64,000 nucleotides of DNA from Saccharomonospora sp. NB11. Its GTDB lineage: Bacteria; Actinomycetota; Actinomycetes; Mycobacteriales; Pseudonocardiaceae. This document shows, in pieces, positions 11,207 to 35,128 of the stretch (its first letter is position 1; every line of letters starts with the position of its first letter). The position numbers and the translations under genes are program-made. The DNA is taken from contig NZ_JACBJG010000006.1 of assembly GCF_015910535.1 (NCBI RefSeq), positions 1 to 64,000 on the forward strand, read 5' to 3'. The notes below the pieces were generated by a model that saw only the letters and a list, made by a program, of their open reading frames with translations, did no database searches and was not told the DNA's origin.

Positions 11207-11290
11207 GTGTCCGCAGTTCCCGCACGCGTGTCCGCCGCTCGCGTACGCATGTCCGCCGTCGGGGTGCGTGTGTCCGCACTTCGCGTGCGT
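11207..11290 (+). repeat. 21-bp tandem repeat array A (4 units)
   Basis: Four contiguous 21-bp units, each opening with (A/G)TGTCCGC and ending around CG(C/T)ACGC, fill the gap between the convergent mbtH and hydrolase genes. A degenerate fifth unit follows. The same family recurs, inverted, at 12774-12857 and in direct orientation at 35066-35128. Confidence 0.8.
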
Positions 11291-11325
11291 GTACCGGCGC
11301 TGGACGGCGCCTCGGCGGCCGACTG

Positions 11326-12060
11326 TCACGCCACGCCGGAGACCGTGCCGTCGTCCACCTGCTCGGCCACCTCGCTCACGAGTCGGGACACGACGCGCGG
11401 CGCGGCGATCGGAACCAGGTGACCCACCCGCGGTACGACGACGAGTCGTGCGCGCTCGCAGACGTCGAGGAATCGCTGTTCGTCGACCCGGAAGTGATCA
11501 CGGCCGCCGTTGACCAGCCACACCGGCCCGCCGTAGCGCGCCACCTCCGCCAGCGGATCGAACCGGACCAGCTCGTCGAGCGCGTCGGGCATCGCCTCCG
11601 TCGCGAAGCCGCGTTCGCCGATCACCGTCGCCGCCCGCTCACCCCACAGCGCGGCGAACAGGCGGTGGTTGAGCCGATCACCGCCGTCGGGGAGTCGGCG
11701 CAGCAGCCCGCCGGCCACACGCAGCGGTCTCGTGCGTTCGGGCGTGGGCACGGCGGTGCAGCCCATCGCGACGAGCCCGGCGACCCGGTCGCCCAGCCGG
11801 GAGGCCGCCGCGATGCCGACGTACCCGCCGAGCGACAGGCCCACGACGAGGGCTCGGCCGCCGAGGTCGTCGATCTCCTGACGAACGAGATCGACGGCGC
11901 CTGCGAGGGTGAAATGCTGTCCGCGTCGATGGCCGTGTCCGGGCAGGTCGGGTGCCGAGACGGGACGCCGTTGACCGACTTCGTGGAGCTGTGGGTGCCA
12001 CATGGTGCCGCTGACGCGGATGCCGTGCAGGAAGAGCACGGGTAGGGGTGCGTGAGTCAT
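11326..12060 (-). CDS. Alpha/beta hydrolase
   Basis: A 244-residue alpha/beta-hydrolase with oxyanion segment LFLHGIRVSGTMWHPQ, nucleophile elbow VVGLSLGGYVG (Ser near 89), and terminal His in VPRVGHLVPIAAP near 220; the acid is likely the Asp in NGGRDHF. Substrate is unknown. ATG 12060 has GGAGGCGAC directly upstream; the frame remains open much further upstream across the tetR gene but that part is antisense. It is divergent from a TetR gene across a perfect palindrome, so its expression is probably repressed by that regulator. Confidence 0.87.
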   Translation of the reverse strand: MTHAPLPVLFLHGIRVSGTMWHPQLHEVGQRRPVSAPDLPGHGHRRGQHFTLAGAVDLVRQEIDDLGGRALVVGLSLGGYVGIAAASRLGDRVAGLVAMGCTAVPTPERTRPLRVAGGLLRRLPDGGDRLNHRLFAALWGERAATVIGERGFATEAMPDALDELVRFDPLAEVARYGGPVWLVNGGRDHFRVDEQRFLDVCERARLVVVPRVGHLVPIAAPRVVSRLVSEVAEQVDDGTVSGVA

Positions 12061-12073
12061 GTCGCCTCCAGTG

Positions 12074-12091
12074 CAACGCAACGTTGCGTTG
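12074..12091. promoter_or_regulatory. Perfect 18-bp palindrome, likely TetR operator
   Basis: CAACGCAACGTTGCGTTG is perfectly self-complementary and lies between the divergent hydrolase and tetR starts, 14 bp before the hydrolase ATG. Its position and symmetry fit an autoregulatory TetR operator. Confidence 0.7.
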
Positions 12092-12135
12092 TGTTCGAGG
12101 CTACTCCACATCGCTGCGGGCGATCGAGACCTGCG

Positions 12136-12141
12136 TACGCT
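12136..12141 (+). promoter_or_regulatory. Leaderless -10 element TACGCT
   Basis: TACGCT lies 6 nt before GTG 12148 of the TetR-family gene. Confidence 0.55.
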
Positions 12142-12147
12142 CGGCGC

Positions 12148-12750
12148 GTGGACGAGAGGCTCCCGGGAAGTCGACGTGCCGGTCGTGGCCCCCGGCAGGC
12201 GCAGGGCATCTACCGCGCGACCCTCGAACTGCTGACCGAGGGCGGCTACGACGGGCTCACCGTCGAGGGCGTGGCCGCCCGATCCGGGGTGAACAAGACG
12301 ACGATCTACCGTTGGTGGCCCGACAAGGACGCCCTCCTCGGCGCTGCGGTGGTGCAGTCCGACCTGCTGCGAATCTCGGTGCCCGACACCGGGAGTCTGC
12401 GCGGTGACCTGCGTGGTCTCGTGCGCGAGCTGGTGCGACTCATGACCGGGCAGGCGACGTCCGGTGTCGTCGCGGCCACGCTGGCGGCGGTCGCCGCGCG
12501 GCCGGGGCTGGAGTGGTTGGCGCGCGAGTTCGTCGCCGATCGGCTGTCCGGTGAGCGGGTCGTGTTCGAGCGTGCTCTGGTGCGAGGGGAGCTGCGGGAG
12601 GCGGTCGACCCGGCGTTGCTCGTGGACTTGCTGGCCGGTGCGGTGTGGTCGCGGGTGATGCTGCGGCAGGAGTCGATCCCCGACGACTTCGCCGAGCGGG
12701 TGGTGGACGTGGTGCTGGACGGCTGCCTGGGCGAGCCACGATCGGGGTAG
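12148..12750 (+). CDS. TetR/AcrR-family transcriptional regulator
   Basis: A 200-residue regulator. The N-terminal DNA-binding domain is complete: IYRATLELLTEGGYDGLTVE, then GVAARSGVNKTTIYRWWPDK as helix-turn-helix with the family's TIYRWW recognition motif. The C-terminal ligand-binding part is helical and resembles the TetR_C_11 type found with YRWW regulators. Inducer is unknown. It likely represses the divergent hydrolase and itself through the palindrome at 12074-12091. GTG 12148 is chosen from the leaderless -10 element and because it starts just before the conserved domain. Confidence 0.87.
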   Translation: MDERLPGSRRAGRGPRQAQGIYRATLELLTEGGYDGLTVEGVAARSGVNKTTIYRWWPDKDALLGAAVVQSDLLRISVPDTGSLRGDLRGLVRELVRLMTGQATSGVVAATLAAVAARPGLEWLAREFVADRLSGERVVFERALVRGELREAVDPALLVDLLAGAVWSRVMLRQESIPDDFAERVVDVVLDGCLGEPRSG

Positions 12751-12773
12751 TCCGTCCGGGGGTAGTGCCCGAG

Positions 12774-12857
12774 GCGTACGCAAGGTGCGGACACGTGTGC
12801 GCAACTGGCGGACACGAGGGCGCAGCTCGCGGACACGAGTGCACAACTGGCGGACAC
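12774..12857 (-). repeat. 21-bp tandem repeat array B (4 units, inverted)
   Basis: Four exact-period 21-bp units, each ending in GCGGACAC on the + strand, that is, opening with GTGTCCGC on the minus strand. The array is the same length (84 bp) as array A and in opposite orientation, so the two bracket the hydrolase and tetR genes. Confidence 0.8.
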
Positions 12858-12907
12858 GCGGGTTACGCTGCGGAGATGGTCACGTCGTGTGGACCTGGTT
12901 TCGGGGG

Positions 12908-12926
12908 TTCGGTTAGCCTCACCTTA
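12908..12926 (+). promoter_or_regulatory. Iron box over a leaderless start
   Basis: TTCGGTTAGCCTCACCTTA matches the iron-box consensus at 16 of 19 positions and its last base is the A of the permease ATG. It contains TAGCCT (12914-12919) 6 nt before that ATG, so the -10 element, the transcription start and the operator coincide. Confidence 0.75.
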
Positions 12927-14005
12927 TGTCACCGGCCGCGCCTGCCTCACCCGATTCGGCGACCGAATCGGAGGCTCGCGCCATCACTGCTCGTCGCGGG
13001 GCGCACCTGTTGCGGGCGGTCGGACTCGTCGTCGCGCTCGCCGGTCTGGTCCTCGTCTGCCTGCTGAGCGTCTGGCTGGGCTCGCGTGACATCCCGTTCA
13101 CCGACACCTGGGACGTGCTGCTGAGGCCGGACGACTTCGCCGGTTCCGACACCGCAGTGATCATCCACGACTACCGCATCCCCCGCACGCTGCTCGGGCT
13201 CATGGCCGGAATGGCGCTGGGCCTGTCCGGGGCGTTGATGCAGGCACTGACACGGAACCCGCTCGCCGAACCCGGACTGCTCGGCGTGAATACGGGCGCC
13301 TCCACGGGCATGGTGCTCGCGATCGCCTTCCTCGGTGTCACGTCCGTGACGGGGTACGTGTGGTTCGCGCTGGTGGGAGCCGCGCTCGCGTCGCTCGTCG
13401 TCTACGTGCTGGGGGCGACGGGCCGGGGTGCCGCGAGTCCCGAGCGGCTGGTGTTGGCGGGAGCGGCGATCACGGCGGTGCTGTACGCGTTCAACACGGC
13501 CGTGCTGTTGTCCGATCCCGAGTCCTACGACGAGTACCGCTTCTGGATGGTCGGGTCACTGGCCGGGCGTTACTACGACGTGCTGCTGCCGTTGTTGCCG
13601 TTCGCGGGGGTCGGTGCCGCGATCGCGCTGCTGCTGATGCGGCCTCTCAACGCGCTGGCCATGGGGGACGACCTGGGTCGGGCGCTGGGGGCGCATCCCG
13701 GGCTCACGAGGGCCGCGGGTGCCGTCGCGGTGACTCTGCTGTGCGGGGCGGCCACGGCCGCGATCGGCCCGATCGCGTTCGTGGGACTCGCCGTGCCGCA
13801 CGCGGCACGCCTGCTGGTGGGACCGGATCAGCGGTGGGTGCTGCCGTACTCGCTGGTGCTCGCGCCGTTGCTGCTGGTGGGGTCGGATGTCGTCGGCAGG
13901 GTGATCGTCCCGTCCGCCGAGGTGCAGGTCGGCATCGTGACCGCGGTGGTCGGGGTGCCCGTGTTCTGTCTGTTGTGTCGACGACGGAGGCTGTCGAGCC
14001 TGTGA
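12926..14005 (+). CDS. Fe3+-siderophore ABC transporter permease, FecCD family (first)
   Basis: A 359-residue FecCD permease with about ten membrane helices; family motifs include YRIPRTLLGLMAGMALGLSG near residue 85, LTRNPLAEPGLLGVNTGAS near 115, the cytoplasmic coupling region ALAMGDDLGRALGAHPGL near 245, and GPIAFVGLAVPHAAR near 285. It imports ferric siderophore in complex with the next permease and ATPase. Translation is coupled to the second permease through GTGA overlap. The iron box over its start implies repression by an iron-bound DtxR-family regulator. No substrate-binding protein gene is adjacent. Confidence 0.93.
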   Translation: MSPAAPASPDSATESEARAITARRGAHLLRAVGLVVALAGLVLVCLLSVWLGSRDIPFTDTWDVLLRPDDFAGSDTAVIIHDYRIPRTLLGLMAGMALGLSGALMQALTRNPLAEPGLLGVNTGASTGMVLAIAFLGVTSVTGYVWFALVGAALASLVVYVLGATGRGAASPERLVLAGAAITAVLYAFNTAVLLSDPESYDEYRFWMVGSLAGRYYDVLLPLLPFAGVGAAIALLLMRPLNALAMGDDLGRALGAHPGLTRAAGAVAVTLLCGAATAAIGPIAFVGLAVPHAARLLVGPDQRWVLPYSLVLAPLLLVGSDVVGRVIVPSAEVQVGIVTAVVGVPVFCLLCRRRRLSSL

Positions 14006-15099
14006 GCGACCAGACCACCACCGACACGCCGACCGACGCTTCGGCGGCTCGACCCGTCACCGGCCGCGTGCTGCGCACGCGCGGCGAGACCGTCGCACTG
14101 CGGTTGCCCACGCGGAGCGTGGTCGTGGGGACGGGCTTGGCGCTCGCCCTGCTCGTCACCGCCGCCATCACGTTGACCACCGGCGACTTCGAGGTGCCGC
14201 TCGGCGACGTGCTCGCGGTGCTCGTCGGGCAGGGTGACGGTGCCGCGGACTTCATCGTGGGCACCCTGCGGCTCCCTCGGTTGCTCACGGCGATCTTCGT
14301 GGGCGCGGGCCTGGCCGTGAGCGGGGCCATCCTGCAGAGTCTGCTGCGCAACCCGCTGGGCAGCCCGGACTTCGTGGGCTTCACCAACGGCGCCTCCACG
14401 GGCGCGCTCGTGATGATCGTCGTGGTCGGCGGCACGATGACCCAGGTCGCGGTCGGAGCACTGGTGGGCGGGCTCTCGACGGCGCTGCTCGTGTACGCGT
14501 TGTCGTATCGCCGGGGGGTGCAGAGCTACCGGTTCGTGCTCGTCGGGGTGGGGATCAACGCCCTGGCGTTGTCGGTGAACTCCTACCTGATCACGCGTGC
14601 CGACATCTACGACGCCGTGAGCGCGCAGGCGTGGCTGGTGGGCAGTGTGAACAGCCGCGGCTGGGAGCACGTCACGGTGTCGGGGCTGGCTCTGGCGGTG
14701 TTGCTGCCGCTGGCACTGAGCCAGGTGCGGGCGTTGTCGATGTTCGAACTCGGCGACCACACCGCCGCGGCGCTGGGGGTGGGGGTGCAGCGCAGCCGGA
14801 CGATCCTCATCGCCTCCAGCGTGCTGCTGGCCGGGTTCGCGACGGCGGCGGCGGGACCGATCTGGTTCGTCGCGCTCGCGGCACCGCAACTGGCGCGGCG
14901 GCTGGTGCGGGGCTCCGCGCCGGGGCTCGTCACGTCGGCCCTGATGGGAGCGCTGTTGTTGTCCGTCAGCGACCTGGCGACCGACCGGCTGTTCCCCGCG
15001 CAGCAACTGCCCGTCGGTACCGCGACGGGCTGCGTGGGCGGGCTCTACCTCATGTGGTTGTTGGCGTCCGAGTGGCGCGGAAAGGGCAGGTACGCGTGA
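14002..15099 (+). CDS. Fe3+-siderophore ABC transporter permease, FecCD family (second)
   Basis: A 365-residue second FecCD subunit with a longer Thr/Asp-rich N-terminus, then RLPRLLTAIFVGAGLAVSG, LLRNPLGSPDFVGFTNGAS, FELGDHTAAALGVGVQRSR and GPIWFVALAAPQLARRL in the usual order. GTG 14002 overlaps the previous stop by 4 nt (GTGA). With its partner it forms a heterodimeric channel in the plasma membrane. No sign of truncation; both permeases have family-standard length. Confidence 0.93.
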   Translation: MSDQTTTDTPTDASAARPVTGRVLRTRGETVALRLPTRSVVVGTGLALALLVTAAITLTTGDFEVPLGDVLAVLVGQGDGAADFIVGTLRLPRLLTAIFVGAGLAVSGAILQSLLRNPLGSPDFVGFTNGASTGALVMIVVVGGTMTQVAVGALVGGLSTALLVYALSYRRGVQSYRFVLVGVGINALALSVNSYLITRADIYDAVSAQAWLVGSVNSRGWEHVTVSGLALAVLLPLALSQVRALSMFELGDHTAAALGVGVQRSRTILIASSVLLAGFATAAAGPIWFVALAAPQLARRLVRGSAPGLVTSALMGALLLSVSDLATDRLFPAQQLPVGTATGCVGGLYLMWLLASEWRGKGRYA

Positions 15100-15965
15100 C
15101 CGACTCGACCGGGACGCGCAGTGGTGCGGGCAGCAGGCTGCGCGCGGAGAACCTCACCCTCGCCTACGACGACGCCGTGGTGGCGAGGAACCTGGGCATC
15201 TCGGTGCCCGACGGGTCCTTCACGGTGATCGTCGGGCCGAACGCGTGCGGGAAGTCGACGCTGCTCAAGGCGCTGGCGCGCATGCTCAAGCCCGACGTCG
15301 GTGTGGTGCACCTCGACGGGAAGGCGATCAGCGACTACCGCTCGCGCGAGGTGGCACGACGGCTCGGTCTGCTGCCGCAGAGTTCGATCGCGCCCAGCGG
15401 CATCACGGTCGGCGACCTCGTGGCGCGGGGGCGCTACCCGCATCAGCGGTTGCTGCGGCAGTGGTCGTCGCAGGACGAGGCCGTGGTGCTGGAGTCGATG
15501 CGGCGCACCGGGGTCGCCGAGCTGGCCGACCGCCTCGTCGACGAGCTGTCGGGCGGGCAGCGGCAGCGGGTGTGGCTGGCGATGGTGCTCGCGCAGCAGA
15601 CGCCGATCCTGCTGCTCGACGAACCGACGACGTTCCTCGACATCGCCCACCAGATCGAGGTCCTCGACCTCTGTGCCGACCTCAACGCCGACGGCCACAC
15701 CCTGGTGGCCGTGCTGCACGACCTCAACCAGGCCTGCCGCTACGCCACGAACCTCGTGGTGCTCGCCCCTGGTGGCCGGATCGCCGCGCAGGGCGACCCG
15801 AGCGAGATCGTCACCGCCGAGCTGATCGCCGACGTCTTCGGACTGCCGTGTCGGGTCATCGACGATCCGGAGACGGGCACACCGCTGATCGTGCCCGCTT
15901 CCCGGAGTCGGCGGAGGTCAGAAGACGACGGTCCGGTTGCCGTGCACGAGCACGCGGCTCTCTAG
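15096..15965 (+). CDS. Siderophore ABC transporter ATP-binding protein (FecE/FepC-like)
   Basis: A 289-residue ATPase with Walker A GPNACGKST near residue 46, Q-loop LPQSSIAP, signature LSGGQRQRVWLAMVLAQQ near 150, Walker B ILLLDEPTTFLD and switch His in AVLHDLNQA. It powers the two FecCD permeases. GTG 15096 overlaps the previous stop (GTGA). The last 48 bp, encoding about 15 residues beyond the conserved domain, overlap the 3' end of purU on the opposite strand, so the tail (EDDGPVAVHEHAAL) is a by-product of antisense sequence. Confidence 0.93.
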   Translation: MTDSTGTRSGAGSRLRAENLTLAYDDAVVARNLGISVPDGSFTVIVGPNACGKSTLLKALARMLKPDVGVVHLDGKAISDYRSREVARRLGLLPQSSIAPSGITVGDLVARGRYPHQRLLRQWSSQDEAVVLESMRRTGVAELADRLVDELSGGQRQRVWLAMVLAQQTPILLLDEPTTFLDIAHQIEVLDLCADLNADGHTLVAVLHDLNQACRYATNLVVLAPGGRIAAQGDPSEIVTAELIADVFGLPCRVIDDPETGTPLIVPASRSRRRSEDDGPVAVHEHAAL

Positions 15966-16781
15966 GTGCCAGCGAAGGCCGCGCGCGAGCGTGACCTTCT
16001 CGATGTCGCGGCCCTTGCGCACCATGTCGGCCACGGTGTCGCGGTGGTCGACCCGGATGACGTCCTGCTCGATGATCGGCCCCGCGTCGAGGTCCGCCGT
16101 CACGTAGTGGCAGGTCGCCCCCACGAGCTTGACGCCTCGCGCGTACGCCTGGTGGTACGGCCGGGCGCCGATGAACGACGGCAGGAAGCTGTGGTGGATG
16201 TTGATCGCCCTGCCGCTCCACGCCTCGCACAGCTCGGGCGGCAGGATGCGCATGAAGCGCGCGAGGACGATCGCGTGCGGGTCGTGTTCGTCGACGAGCT
16301 TCGCGATCTCCGCGAACGACGCGGCGTTGTCGCCCTCGAACGGCACGTGGTGGAACGGGATGCCGTGTGCCCGGGTGATGTCGGCGAGGTTCTCGTGGTT
16401 GCCGATGACGGCGCGCACGTCGGCGTCGAGTTCCCCGGAGGCGACCCGACCCAGCAGGTCGTACAGGCAGTGCCCGTCCTTGGACACCAAGATCACCACG
16501 CGACGGCGTTCACCGGTGTCGTCGACACGCCAGTCGGTCTCCGACCCGAGTGAGCGGGCCACCCCGGCGAACCGGGCCCGCAGCTCGTGGACGTCGAAGG
16601 GCACCGAGTCGGCCCGCACCGCCTGCCGGGTGAAGAACCAGCCCGTGTCCGGGTCGGTGTGGTAGGCGGCCTCGACGATCCACCCGCCGATCTCGGCGAG
16701 GAAGGACGAGATCCGGGAGACGATCCCCCTGCGGTCCGGGCAACCGAAGGTGATGACGTACTGGCGATCCTGCACGGACAC
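15918..16781 (-). CDS. purU: Formyltetrahydrofolate deformylase
   Basis: A 287-residue PurU: an N-terminal ACT domain (YVITFGCPDRRGIVSRISSF, residues 7-90) followed by a formyltransferase-fold hydrolase with INIHHSFLPSFIGARPYHQA near residue 192 and the catalytic Asp in VTADLDAGPIIEQD near 230. It hydrolyses 10-formyl-THF to THF and formate, balancing one-carbon and glycine/methionine pools. It may matter to the neighbouring siderophore formyltransferase because both use 10-formyl-THF, though adjacency may be chance. It converges on the ABC ATPase gene with 48 bp of overlap. Confidence 0.95.
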   Translation of the reverse strand: MSVQDRQYVITFGCPDRRGIVSRISSFLAEIGGWIVEAAYHTDPDTGWFFTRQAVRADSVPFDVHELRARFAGVARSLGSETDWRVDDTGERRRVVILVSKDGHCLYDLLGRVASGELDADVRAVIGNHENLADITRAHGIPFHHVPFEGDNAASFAEIAKLVDEHDPHAIVLARFMRILPPELCEAWSGRAINIHHSFLPSFIGARPYHQAYARGVKLVGATCHYVTADLDAGPIIEQDVIRVDHRDTVADMVRKGRDIEKVTLARGLRWHLESRVLVHGNRTVVF

Positions 16782-16844
16782 GGATTATCCGCTGGTCGTG
16801 CCGGGGTGCGTACGGTGGGCGGCCCGATGGTGACGTCGGAGACG

Positions 16845-17648
16845 TCACCGGGTGCCGTTGGGGCGCACCGTGTCCCACGGCACGGTGAGTTCACCGAGCC
16901 GCCAGCGGCGGGGCCTGCCGAGCACGGGCCAGCCCTGGGCAGCGAGCGCGCGCACGGCCTCGGTCCAGCGGGCGCGGGGGCCGAACGCGCCGTAGGGGGC
17001 GGCGGCGGCCCAACAGGCGTCGAGGCTCGACAGCAGGTCGTGGATCGGCTCACCCGTCACGTTGTGGTGGATGAGGGCCTTGGGAAGGCGTTCGGCCAGC
17101 GTCGAGGGCCGGTCGAGGCTCGCGGTGCGGCAGGACAGTGTGAGAGTGCGCGGTCCGTCGTGGGTCACGGTCACCCACGTGCACAGGCGGCCGATCTCGT
17201 CGCATGTGCCTTCCACGAGCACCCCGCCGGGTGCGATACCCGCGAGCATCGCGTCCCAGGACGGGGCCACGTCGGACTCCGCGTACTGCCGGAGCACGTT
17301 GAAGGCGCGGACGACCACGGGCCGGGTCCCCGCGAGTTCGAAGCCTCCCCGCCGGAAGTCGAGCCGGGGCGGGTCGGCGACGAGTTCGCCTGCGGCCACG
17401 CGGTCGGGGTCCAGTTCGAGGCCCAGCACCCGGACGTCGGCGCGCACGGCCGTCAGGCGTTGGGCGAGTTCCACGGTGGTGACGGGCGAGGCGCCGTAGC
17501 CGAGGTCGACCACCAGTGGGTCGGCCGCGTGGAGCAGGGCGTCGCGCACGAGCGGGTCCCACGTCAGCCAGCGGTCGATCCGGCGGAGCCGGTTGGGGTT
17601 GGTGGTGCCTCGGGTCGGCGTGCCGACCGGCTTCAGCGCGCGAGCCAT
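16845..17648 (-). CDS. Putative class I SAM-dependent methyltransferase
   Basis: A 267-residue protein conserved in appearance but of unclear function. Residues 42-52 read PLVVDLGYGASP, a motif I shape with Gly-Tyr-Gly in place of GxGxG, followed by VRVLGLELDPDRV (motif II acidic residue) and later GGVLVEGTCDEIGRLCTWV. These support a Rossmann methyltransferase; the substrate is unknown. Its start at 17648 lies inside the last 16 bp of the DUF2505 gene, so the two are translated from one message. The weak motif I means binding of SAM is not certain. Confidence 0.65.
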   Translation of the reverse strand: MARALKPVGTPTRGTTNPNRLRRIDRWLTWDPLVRDALLHAADPLVVDLGYGASPVTTVELAQRLTAVRADVRVLGLELDPDRVAAGELVADPPRLDFRRGGFELAGTRPVVVRAFNVLRQYAESDVAPSWDAMLAGIAPGGVLVEGTCDEIGRLCTWVTVTHDGPRTLTLSCRTASLDRPSTLAERLPKALIHHNVTGEPIHDLLSSLDACWAAAAPYGAFGPRARWTEAVRALAAQGWPVLGRPRRWRLGELTVPWDTVRPNGTR

Positions 17649-18127
17649 CGCTCCGTCGCGCGCGCCTCGCTCTCCAACAACTGCGTCACCTGGTCGACGA
17701 CGAACTTCTCGATCTTGCCGCCGACGAGGGGCACGCGCACGGACACCTCGCCGCGCGTGGTCTGGACGGCACCGCTGCCGCTGGGCACCAGTTCGACGTC
17801 GGCGGTGATCCGGCCCGGTACGTCGGACACCTCGACGGTGACGGTTCCGGTCGCGCGATCGCCCTCGCGGGTCCAGACGTGCCTGCGCCGCACGCTCAGG
17901 TCGCCCGAGCGCAGGGAACGGACGATCGAGGGCAGCTTGTCGGCCGGGATGCCCTGCACGAGCGTGTACCGGGCACCGTGTTCGGTCACCTCGTGGTCGC
18001 GGAGTTCCGACTGCTCGCCGCCGACCTGGCGCAGCCGGTCACGCAGCGCGTCCGCCTCGGTCTGGGCGGCGTAGGCGTCGGCGACGCTGTGGGAGAACGT
18101 CGCCCGGTGCTCGATACGGGTCGCCAT
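17633..18127 (-). CDS. DUF2505 family protein (Rv0481c-like)
   Basis: A 164-residue protein beginning MATRIEHRATFSHSVADAYA, with the SRPBCC-like beta-rich body and C-terminal KIEKFVVDQVTQLLESEARATERWL helix (quoted in part) typical of DUF2505. Its position opposite murB matches Rv0481c beside Rv0482. Fold resembles START-like ligand-binding proteins; no ligand is known. ATG 18127 is preferred over an open upstream extension that would run antisense into murB. It is divergent from murB across about 25 bp. Confidence 0.82.
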   Translation of the reverse strand: MATRIEHRATFSHSVADAYAAQTEADALRDRLRQVGGEQSELRDHEVTEHGARYTLVQGIPADKLPSIVRSLRSGDLSVRRRHVWTREGDRATGTVTVEVSDVPGRITADVELVPSGSGAVQTTRGEVSVRVPLVGGKIEKFVVDQVTQLLESEARATERWLAR

Positions 18128-18152
18128 GGCGGGGACAGTACCGTCTGAGGGC

Positions 18153-19208: not shown

Positions 19209-19217
19209 GGTCCGCGC

Positions 19218-19949: not shown

Positions 19950-20025
19950 GACAGCTGATGCTGCCAGGTAATGTGACTGTGCTCGGCCAGGGTGTGGGCG
20001 ACTGCGAAGGGATCTGACGGAACGG

Positions 20026-20877: not shown

Positions 20878-20881
20878 ATCG

Positions 20882-24005: not shown

Positions 24006-24021
24006 CGCTCATGCCGAGGCC

Positions 24022-24163: not shown

Positions 24164-24169
24164 TACGAT
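24164..24169 (+). promoter_or_regulatory. Leaderless -10 element TACGAT
   Basis: TACGAT is followed by 6 nt and GTG 24176, the senX3 start. A small hairpin (AGGCC/GGCCT) lies just upstream at 24140-24155. Confidence 0.5.
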
Positions 24170-24175
24170 GCAGCC

Positions 24176-26052: not shown

Positions 26053-26059
26053 CACGGCA

Positions 26060-26089
26060 CGTTCGGCGCAGCGCGACGACCGCCGAACG
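26060..26089 (+). terminator. Hairpin after regX3
   Basis: CGTTCGGCG (26060-26068) pairs with CGCCGAACG (26081-26089) around 12 nt, 8 bp after the regX3 stop. Confidence 0.6.
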
Positions 26090-26144
26090 GTTCGGGCCGT
26101 ATGTCACAGCAGTATCACGCGCCCGGACGGTACCGTAGGGCTTT

Positions 26145-27113: not shown

Positions 27114-27165
27114 TGCCTGGCTTCACACTGGACGTATCGAACGGGCGACGGGCACGGTGGAAGGG

Positions 27166-28839: not shown

Positions 28840-28841
28840 CG

Positions 28842-29642
28842 GTGCCCGGCTCGACTGTTCCGGTGGCGCTGTCGACGGCGTCGGTGTGGCCCCTGCGGGC
28901 GCATCGGGCGTTCGAGATCGCCGCCGACCTCGGCTTCGACGGTGTCGAGGTCATGGTGTGGGTCGACCCCGACAGCCAGAACGTCGACGCCCTACGCAAG
29001 CACAGTCTCGACACCGGCGTTCCGGTGTTGTCGGTGCACTCCCCGTCGCTGCTCATCACCCAGCGCGTGTGGTCACCGGACCCGGAGGTCCGGTTGCGTC
29101 GGTCGGTGGAGGCGGCGCTCGAACTGGAGGCGAGGACGGTGGTGGTGCACCCGCCGTTCCGCTGGCAGCGGCGTTACGGAGACCGCTTCTCCGACCTCGT
29201 GGCCGAGCTCGAACAGGAGAGCGGGGTGGTGATCGCCGTGGAGAACATGTTCAAGGTGCGGCCCCCCGGAGGTCGCCGCAACGCCCGGATCTCGGCGTTC
29301 CGGCCCTCGATCGACCCGACCGAGGTCGGCTACGCGCACTACACGCTCGACCTCTCGCACACCGCGGCCGCGGGTATGGACGCGTTGGCGCTGGCCGACC
29401 GCATGGGCGACGGGCTCGCCCACGTGCACCTGGCCGACGGCACCGGTGTGCCGAAGGACGAACACCTGGTGCCGGGGCGGGGCGGTCAGCCGTGTGGTGA
29501 GCTCCTGGAACGACTGGTGGAGCGCGACTACGAGGGCGCCGTGGTGTTGGAGATCAACACGCGGTCGGCTCGCTACCCAGCCAATCGGGTGGCCGACCTC
29601 GCCGAGGCGCTGTTGTTCACCCGACTCCATCTCGGACAGTGA
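28842..29642 (+). CDS. Sugar phosphate isomerase/epimerase family TIM-barrel protein
   Basis: A 266-residue xylose-isomerase-like TIM barrel: STASVWPLRAHRAFEIAADL at the start, GFDGVEVMVWVDP, VVVHPPFRWQRRYG near 98, IAVENMFKV near 130, YTLDLSHTAAAGMDAL near 168, LAHVHLADGTGVPKDEHLVP near 190 and AVVLEINTR near 240. His, Glu and Asp at strand ends would hold a divalent metal. Matches the Rv0498 position. The substrate is unknown. GTG 28842 begins 2 nt after the upstream stop, so it belongs to the same operon. Confidence 0.87.
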   Translation: MPGSTVPVALSTASVWPLRAHRAFEIAADLGFDGVEVMVWVDPDSQNVDALRKHSLDTGVPVLSVHSPSLLITQRVWSPDPEVRLRRSVEAALELEARTVVVHPPFRWQRRYGDRFSDLVAELEQESGVVIAVENMFKVRPPGGRRNARISAFRPSIDPTEVGYAHYTLDLSHTAAAGMDALALADRMGDGLAHVHLADGTGVPKDEHLVPGRGGQPCGELLERLVERDYEGAVVLEINTRSARYPANRVADLAEALLFTRLHLGQ

Positions 29643-29719
29643 TCGTCAACGTGCGTAGCGTCACCATCGAGGGTTCCGATGTTCCCCCGGGTAGGCATGG
29701 CGTTCACGCTCCGGACCCG

Positions 29720-29725
29720 TAGAGT
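29720..29725 (+). promoter_or_regulatory. Leaderless -10 element TAGAGT
   Basis: TAGAGT lies 7 nt before GTG 29733 of the proline dehydrogenase gene and decides that start over the open frame upstream. Confidence 0.55.
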
Positions 29726-29732
29726 TTGCTTC

Positions 29733-30659
29733 GTGGAGCCGCTGCGATCATTCATCCTCGCCGCCGCCGACAACGACCTGATTCGGCGCGTGGTCGCCAC
29801 GGCCCCGGGTACGCGGCAGATCGTCGCCCGGTTCGTGCCTGGTGAGACAGTCTCCGATGCCCTGAGAGCCGTGAAGGAACTCGCGGCCGACGGCCGTTGT
29901 GCGACGTTGGACTACCTCGGTGAGTACACCCGCGACCCGGAACTCGTCGAGCGGACGGTCGACACCTACCTGCGGCTGCTCGACGCGTTGGCCGCGGAGC
30001 GGCTGTCCGGCAGCGCCGAGGTGAGTGTGAAGCTGTCGGCGCTCACCGTGGACGGTGACGAGACGATGGCGTCGCGCAACCTGCGTCGTATCTGTGCGGC
30101 GGCGGAGGACTGTGGCACCACCGTGACCGTGGACATGGAGGACCACACCACCACCGACGGCACGTTGCGGGTGGTCGCCGAGGCCCGCCGCACCTGGCCG
30201 TGGGTCGGCGCAGTGGTCCAGTCCTATCTGACCCGCACGGAGTCGGACGTCGCCACGTTGGCACACAAGGGCTCCCGGGTGCGCCTGTGCAAGGGCGCCT
30301 ATGCCGAGCCGGCCGACGTCGTGCTGCCCGACGCCCACGCGGTCGACCTCAGCTACGTGCGCTGTGCCAATCTGCTGCTGGAGGGTGGCGCGTACGCGAT
30401 GTTCGCGACCCACGACCCGCGTCTGGTCGGGCTGTTGCGACAGCGGACGCGCTGGTACGGCAGGGAGAAGGGCAGCTACGAGTACCAGATGCTGTACGGC
30501 GTCCGGCCCGACGAGCAGCGTCGGCTGGCGGCGGAAGGGGAAACCGTGCGTGTGTACGTACCGTTCGGGGAACAGTGGTACGGCTACCTGATGCGGAGGC
30601 TGGCGGAACGCCCCGCGAACCTGGCGTTGTTCCTGCGCGCGTTGGCCAGCCGTTCGTGA
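29733..30659 (+). CDS. Proline dehydrogenase (monofunctional)
   Basis: A 308-residue PRODH-fold FAD enzyme. Characteristic segments are VSVKLSALTVDGDE near 100, TVTVDMEDHTTTDGTLRV near 130, RVRLCKGAYAEPADV near 185 with the substrate-contacting Lys, and EYQMLYGVRPDEQRRLA near 250 leading to VPFGEQWYGYLMRRL with paired Arg for the proline carboxylate. It oxidises L-proline to pyrroline-5-carboxylate in the catabolic direction. Only about 0.9 kb further is proC, which runs the opposite reaction, so the two ends of proline metabolism are neighbours here. GTG 29733 is preferred to an ATG at 29679. Confidence 0.92.
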   Translation: MEPLRSFILAAADNDLIRRVVATAPGTRQIVARFVPGETVSDALRAVKELAADGRCATLDYLGEYTRDPELVERTVDTYLRLLDALAAERLSGSAEVSVKLSALTVDGDETMASRNLRRICAAAEDCGTTVTVDMEDHTTTDGTLRVVAEARRTWPWVGAVVQSYLTRTESDVATLAHKGSRVRLCKGAYAEPADVVLPDAHAVDLSYVRCANLLLEGGAYAMFATHDPRLVGLLRQRTRWYGREKGSYEYQMLYGVRPDEQRRLAAEGETVRVYVPFGEQWYGYLMRRLAERPANLALFLRALASRS

Positions 30660-31480
30660 GCGCGGTGGATTCGGAGCCGCTGCCCTTCTCGGCGGCGTGC
30701 GAGGTGCGGTCGCTCGGGGACGGGACGTTCACGGCCGATCTCCGGCTGGAATGGTCGATCGGCAGGCATCCCCACGGCGGGTTCCTGCTCGCGCTCGCGG
30801 CGAAGGCCGCCGTCCGCGCGTTGTTCGAGGCGGGTGAACCTCCCACCGAACCGTTGGCGGTGAGCGCGGAGTTCCTCCACGCGCTGGCGTTGGGGCCCGT
30901 GCTCTTGCGCACCGACGTCCGCAAGGCGGGCAGGCGCACCACGGTGGTGGCCGTGAGCATCGAGCAGCGGGGACGAAGCTGCGTCGAGGCCCGGGTGACG
31001 GCGGGCAGGCTGCCGCTGCGGCCTTCCGTGTGGCACGACGTGCCCGCACTTCCGCCGGAACCGCCGCCGAGCGCGATCGCGCTGTCGGGTCGCACCGCCG
31101 AGGGCCTCTTCCACCTGAGCAAGGGCTGTGACGTGCGGGTCGACCCCGCCACCGCGGGGTTCTTGACCGGGCGTCACGACGACCCGCCCCGGATGCGGCT
31201 CTGGGCCCGCCCGCGGCAGGCCGACCCCGATCCGTTCTTCCTGCTGGTGGCCGGGGACCTCAACCCACCGGTGGTGTTCAATCTCGGGGCGACGGGGTGG
31301 GCGCCGACGGTGCAGCTCACCTCGCTCGTGCGGACCCGACCTCACCCGGGCTGGCTCCGGATCCAGGTCGACTGTCGGGCCGTCCACGAGGGGTGGTTCG
31401 ACTCCGACGCCGTCGTCGTCGACAGCCACGGCCGCATGGTGTGTCAGGCCCGGCAGTTGGCGTTGGCGTCGCTGCCGTGA
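30656..31480 (+). CDS. Thioesterase family protein (Rv0499-like, double hot-dog)
   Basis: A 274-residue TesB-like double hot-dog protein: LEWSIGRHPHGGFLLALAAKA near residue 30 is the typical first-domain entry, RRTTVVAVSIEQRGRSCVEA the central strand pair, and GWAPTVQLTSLVRTRPHPGW with QVDCRAVHEGWFDSDAVVVD the second domain. Such enzymes hydrolyse acyl-CoA thioesters; chain preference is unknown. GTG 30656 overlaps the proline dehydrogenase stop (GTGA), so it is co-translated with it. Confidence 0.85.
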   Translation: MSAVDSEPLPFSAACEVRSLGDGTFTADLRLEWSIGRHPHGGFLLALAAKAAVRALFEAGEPPTEPLAVSAEFLHALALGPVLLRTDVRKAGRRTTVVAVSIEQRGRSCVEARVTAGRLPLRPSVWHDVPALPPEPPPSAIALSGRTAEGLFHLSKGCDVRVDPATAGFLTGRHDDPPRMRLWARPRQADPDPFFLLVAGDLNPPVVFNLGATGWAPTVQLTSLVRTRPHPGWLRIQVDCRAVHEGWFDSDAVVVDSHGRMVCQARQLALASLP

Positions 31481-31520
31481 CACAGCCCTCTCACGGTGCG
31501 CCCCGTTCGCGGTGAGTGCA

Positions 31521-31526
31521 TAGGGT
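31521..31526 (+). promoter_or_regulatory. Leaderless -10 element TAGGGT
   Basis: TAGGGT is 7 nt from ATG 31534, the proC start. Confidence 0.6.
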
Positions 31527-31533
31527 TGGCGCC

Positions 31534-32343
31534 ATGGGAACCATCGCGGTACTGGGTGCGGGCAAGATCGGTGAAGCGTTGCTGTCGGGGCTGCTCAACG
31601 GGGGACGGTCCCCGGAGGAGCTGCTCTTCACCGAACGGCACCCCGAGCGAGCCGCCGAGCTGGAGGCCAAGTACGGCATCACCGGGGTGACCGTCGAGGA
31701 CGCGGCCAAGCGAGCCGACCTGTTGGTCGTGGCGGTGAAGCCACAGGACATCGACCCCGTCCTCGACAGCCTCGCTGCGGCGCTGGAGGCCGAGACGCTC
31801 GTGGTGTCGTTGTGCGCGGGCCTGCCCACGTCCCTGTTCGAGCGCAGGCTCCCGGCCGGGACGCCGGTGGTGCGGGTCATGCCGAACACCCCGATGCTCG
31901 TGGGTGAGGCGATGAGTGCCGTCTCCCCGGGCAGCCACGCGGGGCCGGAGCACGTGCGGACCGTCACCGAGCTGCTGAGCTGCGTGGGCAAGGTCGTGGA
32001 GGTTCCGGAGTCGCAGCAGGACGCGGTGACCGCGCTGTCCGGGTCCGGCCCGGCGTACTTCTTCTACCTGGTGGAAGCCATGATCGACGCGGGAATCCTG
32101 CTCGGGCTGCCGCGGGCCGTCGCCGAACGGTTGATCGTGCAGTCGGCCGTCGGCGCGGCGAAGATGCTCGACGAGAGCGAGAGTCACCCCGTCCTGCTCA
32201 GGGAAGCCGTGACCTCCCCCGCGGGCACGACGATCAACGCGATCCGCGAGTTGGAGAACCACGGGGTGCGGGCCGCGCTGCTGGCCGCCATCGAGGCGGC
32301 GCGTGACCGCTCGGTCGAGCTGGGTCGCGCGCACGAAGGCTGA
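31534..32343 (+). CDS. proC: Pyrroline-5-carboxylate reductase
   Basis: A 269-residue ProC: Rossmann IAVLGAGKIGEALLSGLL at the N-terminus, VVAVKPQDIDPVL near 70, RVMPNTPMLVGEAMSAV near 115, and the C-terminal dimerisation domain with ALSGSGPAYFFYLVEAMIDA and REAVTSPAGTTINAI. It makes L-proline from P5C with NAD(P)H. ATG 31534 is chosen from the leaderless promoter; an upstream GTG at 31516 is possible. Confidence 0.95.
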   Translation: MGTIAVLGAGKIGEALLSGLLNGGRSPEELLFTERHPERAAELEAKYGITGVTVEDAAKRADLLVVAVKPQDIDPVLDSLAAALEAETLVVSLCAGLPTSLFERRLPAGTPVVRVMPNTPMLVGEAMSAVSPGSHAGPEHVRTVTELLSCVGKVVEVPESQQDAVTALSGSGPAYFFYLVEAMIDAGILLGLPRAVAERLIVQSAVGAAKMLDESESHPVLLREAVTSPAGTTINAIRELENHGVRAALLAAIEAARDRSVELGRAHEG

Positions 32344-32349
32344 GTCCGC

Positions 32350-32390
32350 ACCACCCCGGTGGGTGCGAAGCGCGCACTCACCCGGGTGGT
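32350..32390 (+). terminator. Hairpin after proC
   Basis: ACCACCCCGGTGGGTG (32350-32365) pairs with CACTCACCCGGGTGGT (32375-32390), 16 positions with two mismatches, around a 9-nt loop. It starts 7 bp after the proC stop. Confidence 0.7.
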
Positions 32391-32552
32391 GACCGGCGAG
32401 GTGCCTCCGGTCGAGGTCCCCCGTTCGCCTCTGCAGACGTCGCCCACCCCCCGTCGTTCCCGCTACGCTCGAATGCGAGCACGCGCGTGTCGGTACCGCT
32501 CGGTGGGGAAGCCGAGCGGCACGGCGCGTGGCAAGGGACACGGTGAATCGCT

Positions 32553-32765
32553 ATGCCGCCGAACAATCACGAGGACGACTCAGGTGGCCACGTGCATTTC
32601 CTGACGGTGGCCGAGGTGGCCGCCCTGATGCGGGTCTCGAAAATGACCGTCTACCGGCTCGTGCACTCCGGTGAGCTGCCCGCCGTGCGGGTGGGCAAGT
32701 CGTTCCGGGTGTCCGAGAAGGACGTTCATGCCTACCTCGACAACGCCTACTTCGACGTGGGCTGA
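32553..32765 (+). CDS. Excisionase-family helix-turn-helix protein (Rv0500A-like)
   Basis: A 70-residue MerR/Xis-type DNA-binding protein: FLTVAEVAALMRVSKMTVYR (residues 15-34) then LVHSGELPAVRVGKSFRVSEKDVHAYL. This is the SinR/AlpA/BldC-like single-domain form and sits between proC and the bS22 gene as Rv0500A does. It is a probable transcription factor rather than a phage excisionase, because no integrase or attachment site is nearby. Confidence 0.88.
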   Translation: MPPNNHEDDSGGHVHFLTVAEVAALMRVSKMTVYRLVHSGELPAVRVGKSFRVSEKDVHAYLDNAYFDVG

Positions 32766-32853
32766 GCCTCGACGCGGGGAGGGCCACGCACGCTGCATGG
32801 ACGTGCCCGGGTAACCTGAGGAGCCGTTCGCGACCGACCGTTAGGAGCGTGGT

Positions 32854-32955
32854 GTGGGCTCGGTAATCAAGAAGCGCCGCAAGCGTATGTCGAAGAAGAA
32901 GCACCGCAAGCTGCTTCGCCGCACGCGTATGCAGCGTCGCAAGCAGGGTAAGTGA
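32854..32955 (+). CDS. 30S ribosomal protein bS22 (AURKAIP1/COX24 domain)
   Basis: A 33-residue, extremely basic protein, [20 protein letters not shown] at its start and ending in a QRRKQGK tail. It is nearly identical in pattern to the small mycobacterial protein found bound to the 30S subunit near the decoding centre (bS22, Rv0500B), and to the COX24/AURKAIP1 domain of mitoribosomal mS38. GTG 32854 is preceded by TTAGGAGC with suitable spacing. Very small genes of this kind are easily missed. Confidence 0.93.
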
Positions 32956-33106
32956 GGCCGAAGGCCCGCGGGTGTCGGCACGGCCGCGACGAGGGGTTCG
33001 TCCGGCGAGGCGTGCGTAGCTCGCCCCGACACCGAGGTGTCGGGGTAGCGTCCGCCCTGGTCCATGCCGACCGGGGTCGCGACCGCGCCTGTCACACGGG
33101 GGTCTG

Positions 33107-34078
33107 ATGCCGTCCCATGTCGTCCTCGTCACCGGGGTCTCCGGTGCGCTGGGTGGACGGCTGCTGTCGAGACTGGGTGCGCGTTCCGACGTCGAGCGGG
33201 TCGTCGGTGTCGACACCGCGCCGCCCGACTCGGAGGTGCTCCGCGGGCTCGGCCGAGCGGAGTTCGTTCGGGTCGACATCCGCAATCCTCTGATAGCGAA
33301 GATCATGACCTCCGCGAAGGTGGACACGGTGGTCCATGCCGGTGCCACCTGCCATCCCGCGGGCTCTGGTCGCCGTTCGGCGACCAAGGAAGCCACCGTC
33401 ATCGGCACGATGCGGCTGCTGGCCGCCTGTCAGGGCTCGCCGCACGTGCGCAAGGTGGTCGTCGCTTCGACGACCGCCGTCTACGGCGCCTCGGCTCGGT
33501 CGCAGGCCGTGTTCACCGAGGACGCCGAACTGTTCCCGGCCACCGCGACCGGCGAGTCGAAGGACGCCGTCGAGCTGGAGGGCTACGTCCGCGGTTTCGC
33601 GCGGCGGCGGCCCGACGTGGACGTCACCACGTTCCGGTTCGCCGACATCGTCGCCCCCGACCTCGACACCGTGTTGCGCCGGTATCTCTCGTTGCCGCTC
33701 GTGCCCACCGGCCTGGGTTTCGACGGGCGGCTCCAGTTCCTGCATGTCGAGGACGCACTCGCGGTGCTGGAGCGGGCCGTCGCCGAGGACCGGCCCGGCG
33801 TGTTCAACGTGGCCGGGGACGGTGTCCTGCTCCTGTCGCAGGCGATCCGACGTGCCGGACGTCTCGGCGTGGCCTTTCCCCGAGCGACGCTGGGGCCGCT
33901 CGCGACCGCGTTGCGGCTCACTCGCCGACTGCACGTATCCGCCGATCTGGTGCGACAGTTGAACTACGGACGCGTGGTGGACACGAGCAGGCTCGTCCAC
34001 GAGTTCGGATACCTGCCGAGGTGGACCACGCGGGAGGCGTTCGACGACGCCGTCGTCGGGCACCGGTCGACGGCCTGA
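33107..34078 (+). CDS. NAD-dependent epimerase/dehydratase (extended SDR, Rv0501-like)
   Basis: A 323-residue extended SDR with VVLVTGVSGALGGRLLSRLG (GxxGxxG) at the N-terminus and VVVASTTAVYGASARSQA near 120. The usual active-site YxxxK is replaced by a region reading ESKDAVELEGYVRG, so classical sugar-epimerase catalysis is doubtful. Annotated as galE2 in mycobacteria by homology only. The C-terminal domain is well formed (FLHVEDALAVLERAV). It lies 19 bp before the acyltransferase gene, so the pair is likely an operon. Confidence 0.85.
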   Translation: MPSHVVLVTGVSGALGGRLLSRLGARSDVERVVGVDTAPPDSEVLRGLGRAEFVRVDIRNPLIAKIMTSAKVDTVVHAGATCHPAGSGRRSATKEATVIGTMRLLAACQGSPHVRKVVVASTTAVYGASARSQAVFTEDAELFPATATGESKDAVELEGYVRGFARRRPDVDVTTFRFADIVAPDLDTVLRRYLSLPLVPTGLGFDGRLQFLHVEDALAVLERAVAEDRPGVFNVAGDGVLLLSQAIRRAGRLGVAFPRATLGPLATALRLTRRLHVSADLVRQLNYGRVVDTSRLVHEFGYLPRWTTREAFDDAVVGHRSTA

Positions 34079-34097
34079 CGAGAGGGGCGAGAGCAGC

Positions 34098-35060
34098 GTG
34101 ACGGCACACGGGCGGGCGAAGGTGGTGCCGCTGCAGCGCGACGGCCGAGACGACCACTCCGGCGGAGCCGACGCCGAGGGGCGGGCACCCGTCGTCCCGC
34201 TGCCCACGGCCGACACCGCCGAGGAGCCTCGGTCGTTCGACGACCTCGTCGACTTCGTGCGACGGCGACTGCGGGGTGACTTCGAGGTCGACGAGTTCGG
34301 CTTCGACCCGGAGCTGACCGAGACCGTGTTGTTCCCGCTGCTGCGCCCGCTGTACGAGCGGTGGTTCCGAGTCACCACGATCGGTGTCGACAACATCCCG
34401 GACACGGGGAGCGCGCTGCTCGTGTCGAACCACTCGGGCGTGCTCCCGCTCGACGCCGTCATGACGGCCTTCGCCGTCCACGAGGAGCATCCCGAGCGCC
34501 GCTTCCTGCGCATGCTCGGCGCCGACCTCGTGTTCGACACCCCGGTGTTGGGCTCGCTCGCCCGGCGGACGGGGCAGACGCTGGCGTGTCACCCGGACGC
34601 CGAACGCCTGCTGCGGGACGGGCAGTTGGTGGGGGTGTGGCCGGAGGGGTTCAAGGGCATCGGCAAGCCGTTCTCGGCGCGCTACAAGCTGCAGCGGTTC
34701 GGCCGGGGCGGCTTCGTGACGGCGGCGTTGCGGACGTCGGCGCCGATCGTGCCGTGCGCGATCGTGGGGGCCGAGGAGATCTATCCCAAGATCGGCGACA
34801 TCCGGCCGTTGGCACGTCTGCTGAGGCTGCCGTACTTCCCGGTGACGCCGTTCTTCCCGCTGCTCGGCCCGCTGGGGACGGTGCCGCTGCCGACGAAGTG
34901 GACCATCGAGTTCGGCGAGCCGATCCGCACCGACGGCTACGCCGCCGATGCGCATGACGACCAGATGCTCGTGCTGAGCCTCACCGACCAGGTCCGCGAG
35001 AGCATCCAGACGATGCTCTACCGCCGACTCGCCCGCCGCCGAGGAATCTTCTCGGGCTGA
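34098..35060 (+). CDS. 1-acylglycerol-3-phosphate O-acyltransferase-like protein (Rv0502-like)
   Basis: A 320-residue PlsC-family acyltransferase. The catalytic NHSGVLPLDAVMTAF (Asn-His-x4-Asp, residues about 112-126) is present, as is the phosphate-binding GVWPEGFKGIGKPF block near 178 and the terminal PTKWTIEFGEPI. A 50-residue charged N-terminal extension precedes the core. The likely role is acylation of a glycerophospholipid or glycolipid at the inner membrane leaflet. GTG 34098 follows GAGAGGGGCGAGAGCAGC. Confidence 0.88.
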   Translation: MTAHGRAKVVPLQRDGRDDHSGGADAEGRAPVVPLPTADTAEEPRSFDDLVDFVRRRLRGDFEVDEFGFDPELTETVLFPLLRPLYERWFRVTTIGVDNIPDTGSALLVSNHSGVLPLDAVMTAFAVHEEHPERRFLRMLGADLVFDTPVLGSLARRTGQTLACHPDAERLLRDGQLVGVWPEGFKGIGKPFSARYKLQRFGRGGFVTAALRTSAPIVPCAIVGAEEIYPKIGDIRPLARLLRLPYFPVTPFFPLLGPLGTVPLPTKWTIEFGEPIRTDGYAADAHDDQMLVLSLTDQVRESIQTMLYRRLARRRGIFSG

Positions 35061-35065
35061 CCCGC

Positions 35066-35128
35066 GTGTCCTCGGCCCACGCACGGATGTCCGCAGTTCA
35101 CGTACGGGTGTCAGCGGTTCCCGCACGT
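35066..35128 (+). repeat. 21-bp tandem repeat array C (3 units)
   Basis: Three exact-period 21-bp units at 35066-35086, 35087-35107 and 35108-35128, opening (A/G)TGTC and ending near CG(C/T)ACG, the same family as arrays A and B. It fills the gap between the convergent acyltransferase and HAD genes. Confidence 0.75.

What the first reader, a model, noticed from the sequence alone, without database searches (positions are those of the whole stretch)
11207..35128. Family of 21-bp-period intergenic tandem repeats at gene ends
Three arrays (11207-11290, four units; 12774-12857, four units; 35066-35128, three units) share a unit opening GTGTCCGC and closing near CGYACNC with exact 21-bp period and no spacers. 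All lie at gene 3' ends; two are between convergent genes. Conserved period and 5' octamer with a variable centre suggest selection or active spread. I cannot name the family. They may bind a protein cooperatively (21 bp is two helical turns), act as transcription barriers, or be a mobile short repeat.
Basis: seen in the sequence. Interest (0 to 1): 0.75.

Follow-up and report, generated by a model that had tools for sequence, protein, structure and literature searches.

The report
Facing 21-bp arrays at gene ends
Short 21-letter DNA repeats sit right behind genes at many places in this bacterium's genome, keep those places in related species while their spelling changes, and probably mark or enforce the ends of transcription through an as yet unknown factor.

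Summary
The three arrays are real and belong to a genome-wide family. The own genome holds 130 exact TGTCCGC-N14-TGTCCGC pairs (reversed control 0). Eight of 12 congeners hold 114-342; of 285 other family members sampled, four hold 32-155. Arrays start a median 4-15 nt after stop codons, more often in sense, and often form facing pairs (42 facing, 0 back-to-back in four genomes). Of 182 orthologous junctions with the nearest species, 12 carry arrays in both and 1 in one only. Units nevertheless change in concert: one clade switched part of the unit, and one genome carries the same element at three loci. Four congeners poor in this core carry 21-bp gene-end arrays with another core, three Amycolatopsis a third. 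Unit hairpins, arm-to-arm hairpins and REP/RAYT were tested and not supported. Best explanation, inferred and not shown: polar sites for a sequence-specific DNA-binding factor that bounds transcription at gene ends, homogenised by array-to-array conversion and co-evolving with its reader.

The parts
11207..11290 (+). Array 1: four 21-bp units, cores GTGTCCGC, GTGTCCGC, ATGTCCGC, GTGTCCGC; starts 8 nt after the stop of an MbtH-like gene, in sense
   Evidence: array at the same junction and in the same orientation in G001, G002, G003
12774..12857 (-). Array 2: four 21-bp units on the minus strand, between a tetR-type gene (stop at 12750) and a FecCD transporter gene
   Evidence: minus orientation kept in G001, G002, G003
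35066..35128 (+). Array 3: three degenerate 21-bp units, 5 nt after the stop of an acyltransferase gene, convergent with a HAD hydrolase gene
   Evidence: the junction carries the repeat in 8 of 8 array-bearing congeners, in G009 as one inverted repeat only, and facing arrays in G020 of another genus
11004..11198 (+). MbtH-like gene upstream of array 1
11326..12039 (-). alpha/beta hydrolase gene, convergent with the MbtH gene across array 1
12148..12750 (+). TetR-type regulator gene, ends 23 nt before array 2
13010..14005 (+). FecCD transporter gene downstream of array 2 (the open frame starts at 12926)
34098..35060 (+). acyltransferase gene upstream of array 3
35149..36150 (-). HAD-type hydrolase gene, convergent across array 3

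Best explanation
Each 21-bp unit (here GTGTCCGC-N5-SCGYACKC) is a site for a sequence-specific factor, most likely a DNA-binding protein that polymerises along the helix, because 21 bp is two turns and successive sites face the same side. Arrays of 2-10 units in sense behind a stop codon, or facing pairs around a centre, would form a polar barrier that stops or releases RNA polymerase and shields the gene end from antisense or read-through transcription; where a hairpin terminator is present the array lies behind it as a second barrier. Unit number changes by tandem gain and loss. Arrays are homogenised by conversion between loci, and the conserved core changes between lineages, presumably together with its reader. 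Shown: anatomy, position, orientation, conservation of place, concerted change, other cores in relatives. Inferred: a protein reader, DNA rather than RNA as the target, conversion as the homogenising process, and the barrier function.
For: Position: median 14, 15, 11 and 4 nt after the stop in G000, G001, G031, G007; in G000 arrays occur in 27 of 124 convergent, 24 of 444 same-strand and 2 of 116 divergent junctions. Orientation: single arrays in same-strand junctions 23 sense, 7 antisense in three genomes (p 0.005); adjacent arrays 42 facing, 0 back-to-back, 2 same-strand. Helical phase: 356 neighbouring core pairs at multiples of 21, 25 not; facing cores spaced 10, 31, 52 or 73 nt in 129 of 129 core pairs of G007 and 52 of 86 in G031. 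Core conserved while the centre is close to saturated (the detection matrix favours the core). Location conserved. Little sign of RNA structure: top co-varying unit positions are neighbours, not hairpin partners; a clade-wide change breaks two unit pairs; no arm-to-arm complementarity beyond the core. Antisense array 2 keeps its orientation in three further species, which an RNA signal of the neighbouring genes does not explain. Same period, with another core, at gene ends of relatives.
Against: No factor was identified and no expression data were available. Seven single antisense arrays in same-strand junctions (10 with G007) and one back-to-back pair in G151 break the simple sense rule; in G031 3 of 75 divergent junctions carry arrays. 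Phase between facing arrays is strict only in G007: 4 of 14 core pairs on the lattice in G000, 9 of 17 in G001. The 21-bp period could simply be inherited by unit duplication. Strong hairpins (z -2.5 or lower against base shuffles) precede the array in 12 of 23 spacers of 22-90 nt, so arrays are not the only terminator candidate there. In convergent junctions of G000 with a single array, the array is nearer the gene it follows in sense in 13 of 20 by my count from the listing, which is no clear preference. Array ends of same-strand sense junctions in G000 and array ends in G007 fold more strongly than non-array ends.
Confidence: 0.42

Rival explanations
1. RNA-level signal: the sense array in the 3' UTR is read as RNA, as short hairpins, a Rho site or a repeated protein site, to terminate or protect the mRNA.
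For: Sense bias and closeness to stops; some units can form a 7-pair hairpin; G009 has one perfect 8-bp hairpin at the array-3 junction; array 2 on its own strand folds better than shuffles (z -2.4); array ends in G007, a few in G031 and same-strand sense ends in G000 fold more strongly than non-array ends.
Against: In G000 convergent array ends fold like non-array ends; arrays 1 and 3 of the window fold no better than shuffles; no hairpin covariation in units; the clade switch breaks the unit hairpin; arms of facing pairs are not complementary beyond the core; C over G is absent in G007; an antisense array is conserved.
Confidence: 0.2
2. Chromosome-structure element: sites for a nucleoid protein or gyrase at places where convergent transcription piles up supercoils, as reported for BIME-2.
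For: Convergent and gene-end location; helical phasing; BIME-2 is described as binding gyrase (PMC2817692, passage).
Against: Sense preference and polar single arrays are not required by it; most convergent junctions in the stretches carry no array (97 of 124 in G000).
Confidence: 0.18
3. Non-adaptive gene-end satellite: arrays persist because gene ends tolerate them and because conversion and slippage keep renewing them.
For: Unit-number turnover and identical runs; copies of one element at three loci; concerted change.
Against: Place and orientation kept in nearly all orthologous junctions compared, across species with about 86-92% median protein identity; kept phase with nearly saturated centres; scarcity in divergent junctions of G000; relatives with another core keep the period, and at the PhoH junction the place.
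Confidence: 0.2

Closest known systems
REP / BIME / REPIN elements with RAYT transposase (PMC3733652 and PMC2817692, passages seen)
   Same: Many copies, intergenic, preferentially between convergent and same-strand genes and downstream of coding regions; often paired in opposite orientation.
   Different: Units here are spacer-free 21-bp direct repeats, not conserved stem-loops; no general GTAG or CGTC tag; no consistent RAYT; lineage-specific core.
MIRU/VNTR-type intergenic tandem repeats of actinobacteria (recalled, no call)
   Same: Tandem, intergenic, unit number varies between relatives at fixed loci.
   Different: Very many loci with a shared core, gene-end polarity and facing pairs.
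TTF-I / Sal box terminators of eukaryotic rDNA (recalled; search listing only)
   Same: Works-like: repeated polar protein sites behind a gene that stop the polymerase.
   Different: Eukaryotic, one locus type; binding is known there (recalled), not here.
BldC on direct repeats (recalled, no call); WhiA sites GACAC (PMC3781837, passages); ClgR sites GTTCGC-5N-GCG (PMC9775585, passage)
   Same: The WhiA motif lies inside the core (GCGGACAC); the ClgR motif resembles GTCCGC-N5-GCG; BldC is a precedent for head-to-tail binding to direct repeats.
   Different: The WhiA and ClgR sites are described in the passages for promoters of target genes; no binding to arrays tested.

Membership tests
REP/REPIN | unit is a palindromic stem-loop | tested here: not met
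   Arrays 1 and 3 fold no better than shuffles, array 2 does; no hairpin covariation among 283 distinct G000 units; clade-wide loss of two pairs
REP/REPIN | associated Y1 transposase (RAYT, PF01797) in the genome | tested here: not met
   27 genomes searched: present in 3 of 11 with 44 or more core pairs (G000, G001, G007) and in G038 (32 pairs), but also in array-poor G006, G016, G018, G023, G081
REP/REPIN | intergenic, at gene 3' ends, facing doublets | tested here: met
REP/REPIN | GTAG or CGTC tag | tested here: not met
   GNAG before the next core is common in G007, G009, G010 only; 1 of 903 core pairs in the other five array-bearing congeners; CGTC was not counted
Intrinsic terminator | G+C-rich hairpin followed by a T run | tested here: not met
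   0 sites in window 10900-13100 and 34900-35300, i.e. around all three arrays
Rho utilisation site | C much richer than G in the transcript | tested here: inconclusive
   C/G 0.38/0.32 in G000, 0.41/0.31 in G001, but 0.34/0.35 in G007
CRISPR array | repeats separated by unique spacers | tested here: not met
   contiguous 21-bp units
Known RNA family (Rfam 15) | covariance-model match | tested here: not met
   no match up to E 1 in window 10900-13100 and 34900-35300
VNTR / minisatellite | unit number varies between relatives at the same locus | tested here: met
   e.g. 5 vs 2, 4 vs 3, 10 vs 4 units between G000 and G001
Polar protein-bound terminator | specific protein bound to the sites; orientation-dependent stop of RNA polymerase | not testable with these tools
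   no binding or expression data available here

The most novel reading that the evidence does not exclude
A bacterial transcription-boundary system written as helically phased, polar repeat arrays at gene ends across one branch of Pseudonocardiaceae, in which the DNA code (GTGTCCGC, GCGAGTYG-type or GTAACTCGCGTG-type core) and an unknown reader protein have been replaced together more than once while at least some array positions stayed fixed.
Probability: 0.3. Interest if true: 0.92.

Novelty: new variant of a known kind. Interest (0 to 1): 0.74.

Why it matters
How G+C-rich actinomycetes end and insulate transcripts is poorly understood (my own knowledge). A gene-end element present at very many loci, with a strict period and orientation and a core that differs between sister clades, would give a defined handle on that question and a natural experiment in co-evolution of a DNA code with its reader. 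It also shows that interspersed gene-end repeats can be stable in place and fluid in sequence without a consistent REP-type transposase.

Tried and rejected
Intra-unit RNA hairpin: not supported by covariation and broken by the clade switch. Long hairpin between facing arms: rejected, arms no more alike within than between loci. REP/RAYT: not supported. C-rich Rho site: not general. Recent hopping: not seen for the species pairs tested. The three-locus copies of G010 first looked like insertions; at two of the three junctions (PhoH, amylase) all eight array-bearing congeners carry arrays, so conversion of existing arrays is simpler; the third junction was not checked. Insertion at stop codons: stop-codon use at arrays is like background in G000, G001, G031; in G007 the unit itself supplies TAG in some genes. 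The 40-kb region of G151 with five arrays: two proteins I judged regulator-like from their sequence (IclR- and DeoR-like, recalled, not profiled), no lead followed. Viral contigs: 28 single three-core matches, fetched by the tool but not examined. Plasmids: no match to array 1, the only array tried. Phylum sample of 396 genomes: only the own genome, plus one match in a G+C-rich simple repeat of G321. Period-27 signal in named loci: N runs and an uncalled basic coding stretch in the five printed of 41. Print: no report of this family met in the held library; the ten searches were made, most of them narrow, and one search listed only 20 of 281 hits. A Pseudonocardiaceae genome comparison (PMC3469384, find only) does not use the word repeat.
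Full report
OBSERVATION. Six 21-mers match a consensus with up to three mismatches; none of 100 shuffles reaches six. The own genome (4.30 Mb, 29 contigs; the window is contig 26:1-64000) holds 60 forward and 70 reverse exact TGTCCGC-N14-TGTCCGC pairs and 0 of the reversed pattern. Array 2 is on the minus strand and lies between two plus-strand genes (a tetR-type regulator and a FecCD transporter); arrays 1 and 3 lie between convergent genes.

ANATOMY. I called genes by codon composition and arrays by a 21-position weight matrix in the window plus 36 own-genome stretches (766 kb in all, chosen because they hold listed core pairs, except L063): 72 merged arrays with 304 units; 55 of 70 non-edge arrays follow in sense the stop codon of the gene on their 5' side. 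The unit is GTGTCCGC-N5-SCGYACKC; the first eight bases are 87-99% conserved in G000 (the matrix favours them), the middle is variable. Junctions with arrays in G000: convergent 27 of 124, same-strand 24 of 444, divergent 2 of 116; in G031 7 of 76, 17 of 209 and 3 of 75 (three arrays per genome lay in genes or at edges and were left out). Single arrays in same-strand junctions are 23 sense and 7 antisense over G000, G001 and G031 (p 0.005); G007 adds 4 and 3. Neighbouring arrays within 130 nt: 42 facing, 0 back-to-back, 2 same-strand over four genomes; one back-to-back pair occurs in G151. Facing cores are spaced 10 + 21k nt in 129 of 129 core pairs within 75 nt in G007, 52 of 86 in G031, 9 of 17 in G001 and 4 of 14 in G000; these count core pairs, so one element counts several times. 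A minority of arrays carry a centre GTGTYSGC-RNCGYRCGNN-GC (4 of 72, 5 of 24, 14 of 43 and 16 of 36 arrays of G000, G001, G031, G007). The matrix was trained on G000, so counts in G007 are lower bounds.

DISTRIBUTION. In the genus, 8 of 12 genomes hold 114-342 exact pairs and 4 hold 0-6. Of 285 other family members sampled, G020 (155), G031 (129), G068 (44) and G038 (32) are rich; G151 has 10, nine of them within 20 kb; G107 has 11, ten of them a 7-base simple repeat; the others have few, near the level of the reversed control. In a phylum sample of 396 genomes only the own genome and one G+C-rich simple repeat match a three-core pattern. The protein beside array 3 is identical in G008 and Saccharomonospora saliphila, so the genus is probably Saccharomonospora (inference). 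On a tree of that protein (52 rows) the GTGTCCGC-bearing congeners form one clade (support 100/99), sister to the S. saliphila group; the label needs at least 3 changes on well-supported branches, with relatives of another core counted as without.

FIXED PLACE. Orthologous neighbouring gene pairs: G000/G001 12 shared, 0 and 1 unshared, 169 without; G000/G002 3, 0 and 1, 81; G000/G003 4, 0 and 1, 81; G000/G010 1, 1 and 0, 80. All three window arrays are present, with orientation kept, in G001, G002 and G003; in G001 and G002 array 3 has in addition a facing partner. The antisense array 2 is among them. The array-3 junction carries the repeat in 8 of 8 array-bearing congeners, in G009 reduced to one perfect 8-bp inverted repeat, and facing arrays in G020 of another genus, but none in G031, G068 or G038. 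The PhoH-type and amylase-type junctions (names from my reading of the protein ends) carry arrays in 8 of 8.

FLUID SEQUENCE. Identity at unit positions 8-14 is only slightly higher within than between arrays (0.51/0.42 in G000, 0.67/0.51 in G007). Yet one clade changed together: the junction type GNAG makes up 313 of 342 core pairs in G007, 96 of 156 in G009, 95 of 188 in G010, and 1 of 903 in the other five array-bearing congeners. In G010 one facing element of about 140-190 bp is nearly identical at three loci with unrelated flanks, the likeness starting and ending with the array. Two of these junctions carry arrays in every array-bearing congener, so conversion of existing arrays is simpler than insertion.

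OTHER CORES. The four congeners poor in GTGTCCGC pairs carry, behind a hairpin (by eye) at the PhoH junction, about three to four 21-bp units with a CGAGTYG core. Their amylase junction shows no 21-bp array (0 of 4). The array-3 junction shows none where it can be read; runs of N hide part of it in G004 and G005. In 90 kb of G006, taken beside the PhoH locus, at single hits of the hairpin pattern, or arbitrarily, three junctions hold such arrays (L349 12271-12923, facing; L353 11125-11231 and L354 5355-5465). Of 53 junctions scanned, 12 passed the repeat threshold, 3 of them at lag 21 (one a G+C-rich hairpin repeat) and 9 at other lags. Thirty-seven units picked by the motif itself give YCCGCGAGTYGMCACYCC. 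It can be laid on the common G000 variant GTGTCC-GCGAGTTGCGCAC-GC on the same strand; homology is my inference. At the array-3 junction three Amycolatopsis (L130, L132, L136) carry facing 21-bp arrays with a GTAACTCGCGTG-type unit around a palindrome. Against over-reading: in that 109-locus scan lag 21 was best in 8 and lag 18 in 26 loci above the threshold; the 260-nt windows include coding sequence, and of the lag-21 loci I judge L130, L132, L136 and L289 (G020) to be arrays by eye. A 15-kb stretch of G026, an Amycolatopsis relative on the tree, showed no array above the threshold.

WHAT IT DOES. Not shown by any search. Against RNA structure: arrays 1 and 3 fold no better than shuffles, convergent array ends of G000 fold like non-array ends, no unit hairpin covariation, no arm complementarity, a clade switch that breaks the unit hairpin. 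For it: array 2 on its own strand folds better than shuffles (z -2.4), and array ends of G007, a few of G031 and the same-strand sense ends of G000 fold more strongly than non-array ends. Helical phase (356 neighbouring core pairs in phase, 25 not), polarity and a conserved antisense array favour duplex sites for a protein that bounds transcription. Twelve of 23 spacers of 22-90 nt between stop and array hold a strong hairpin (z -2.5 or lower against base shuffles), so the array would often be a second barrier. Candidate readers are leads only: WhiA (GACAC; PMC3781837, passages), ClgR (GTTCGC-5N-GCG; PMC9775585, passage), BldC (recalled).

FILING. Closest known kind: interspersed gene-end repeats of REP/BIME type, described as lying mainly between convergent and unidirectional genes (PMC3733652, passages). 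Location and pairing agree; stem-loop unit, tag and RAYT do not. I therefore do not file it as REP, and rate it a new variant of a known kind, with a categorically new reading left open.

Noticed in passing
window 3108-3147: Two TTATCCACA and one TTATCCACC (DnaA-box-like, name recalled) lie within 40 bp between a DUF445 gene and a glyoxalase-like gene.
   Followed up: no
L234 about 10100-10130 (G007 contig 9): Similar TTATCCACA repeats stand directly beside a facing 21-bp array.
   Followed up: no
L146 951-1415 (Rhodococcus rhodnii): Two GTGTCCGC-type cores with lag 22 in an intergenic stretch outside the family.
   Followed up: no
L041 4582-4743 against L070: One array junction is almost letter-identical between G000 and G001 while other array junctions are diverged, as if recently exchanged.
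   Followed up: no
L151 and L152 (G151 6.28-6.32 Mb): A genome with otherwise one core pair carries five arrays within 20 kb, possibly transferred DNA.
   Followed up: partly
window 12858-12925: The stretch between array 2 and the FecCD frame holds GGTTAGCCTCACCTTATG, with close versions in G001, G002 and G003, reminiscent of an iron-regulated promoter (recalled).
   Followed up: no
L353 11667-12061 (G006): A 23-bp tandem repeat GTGTGAGAAGGCCGCTAG... in a divergent junction, a different repeat family.
   Followed up: no
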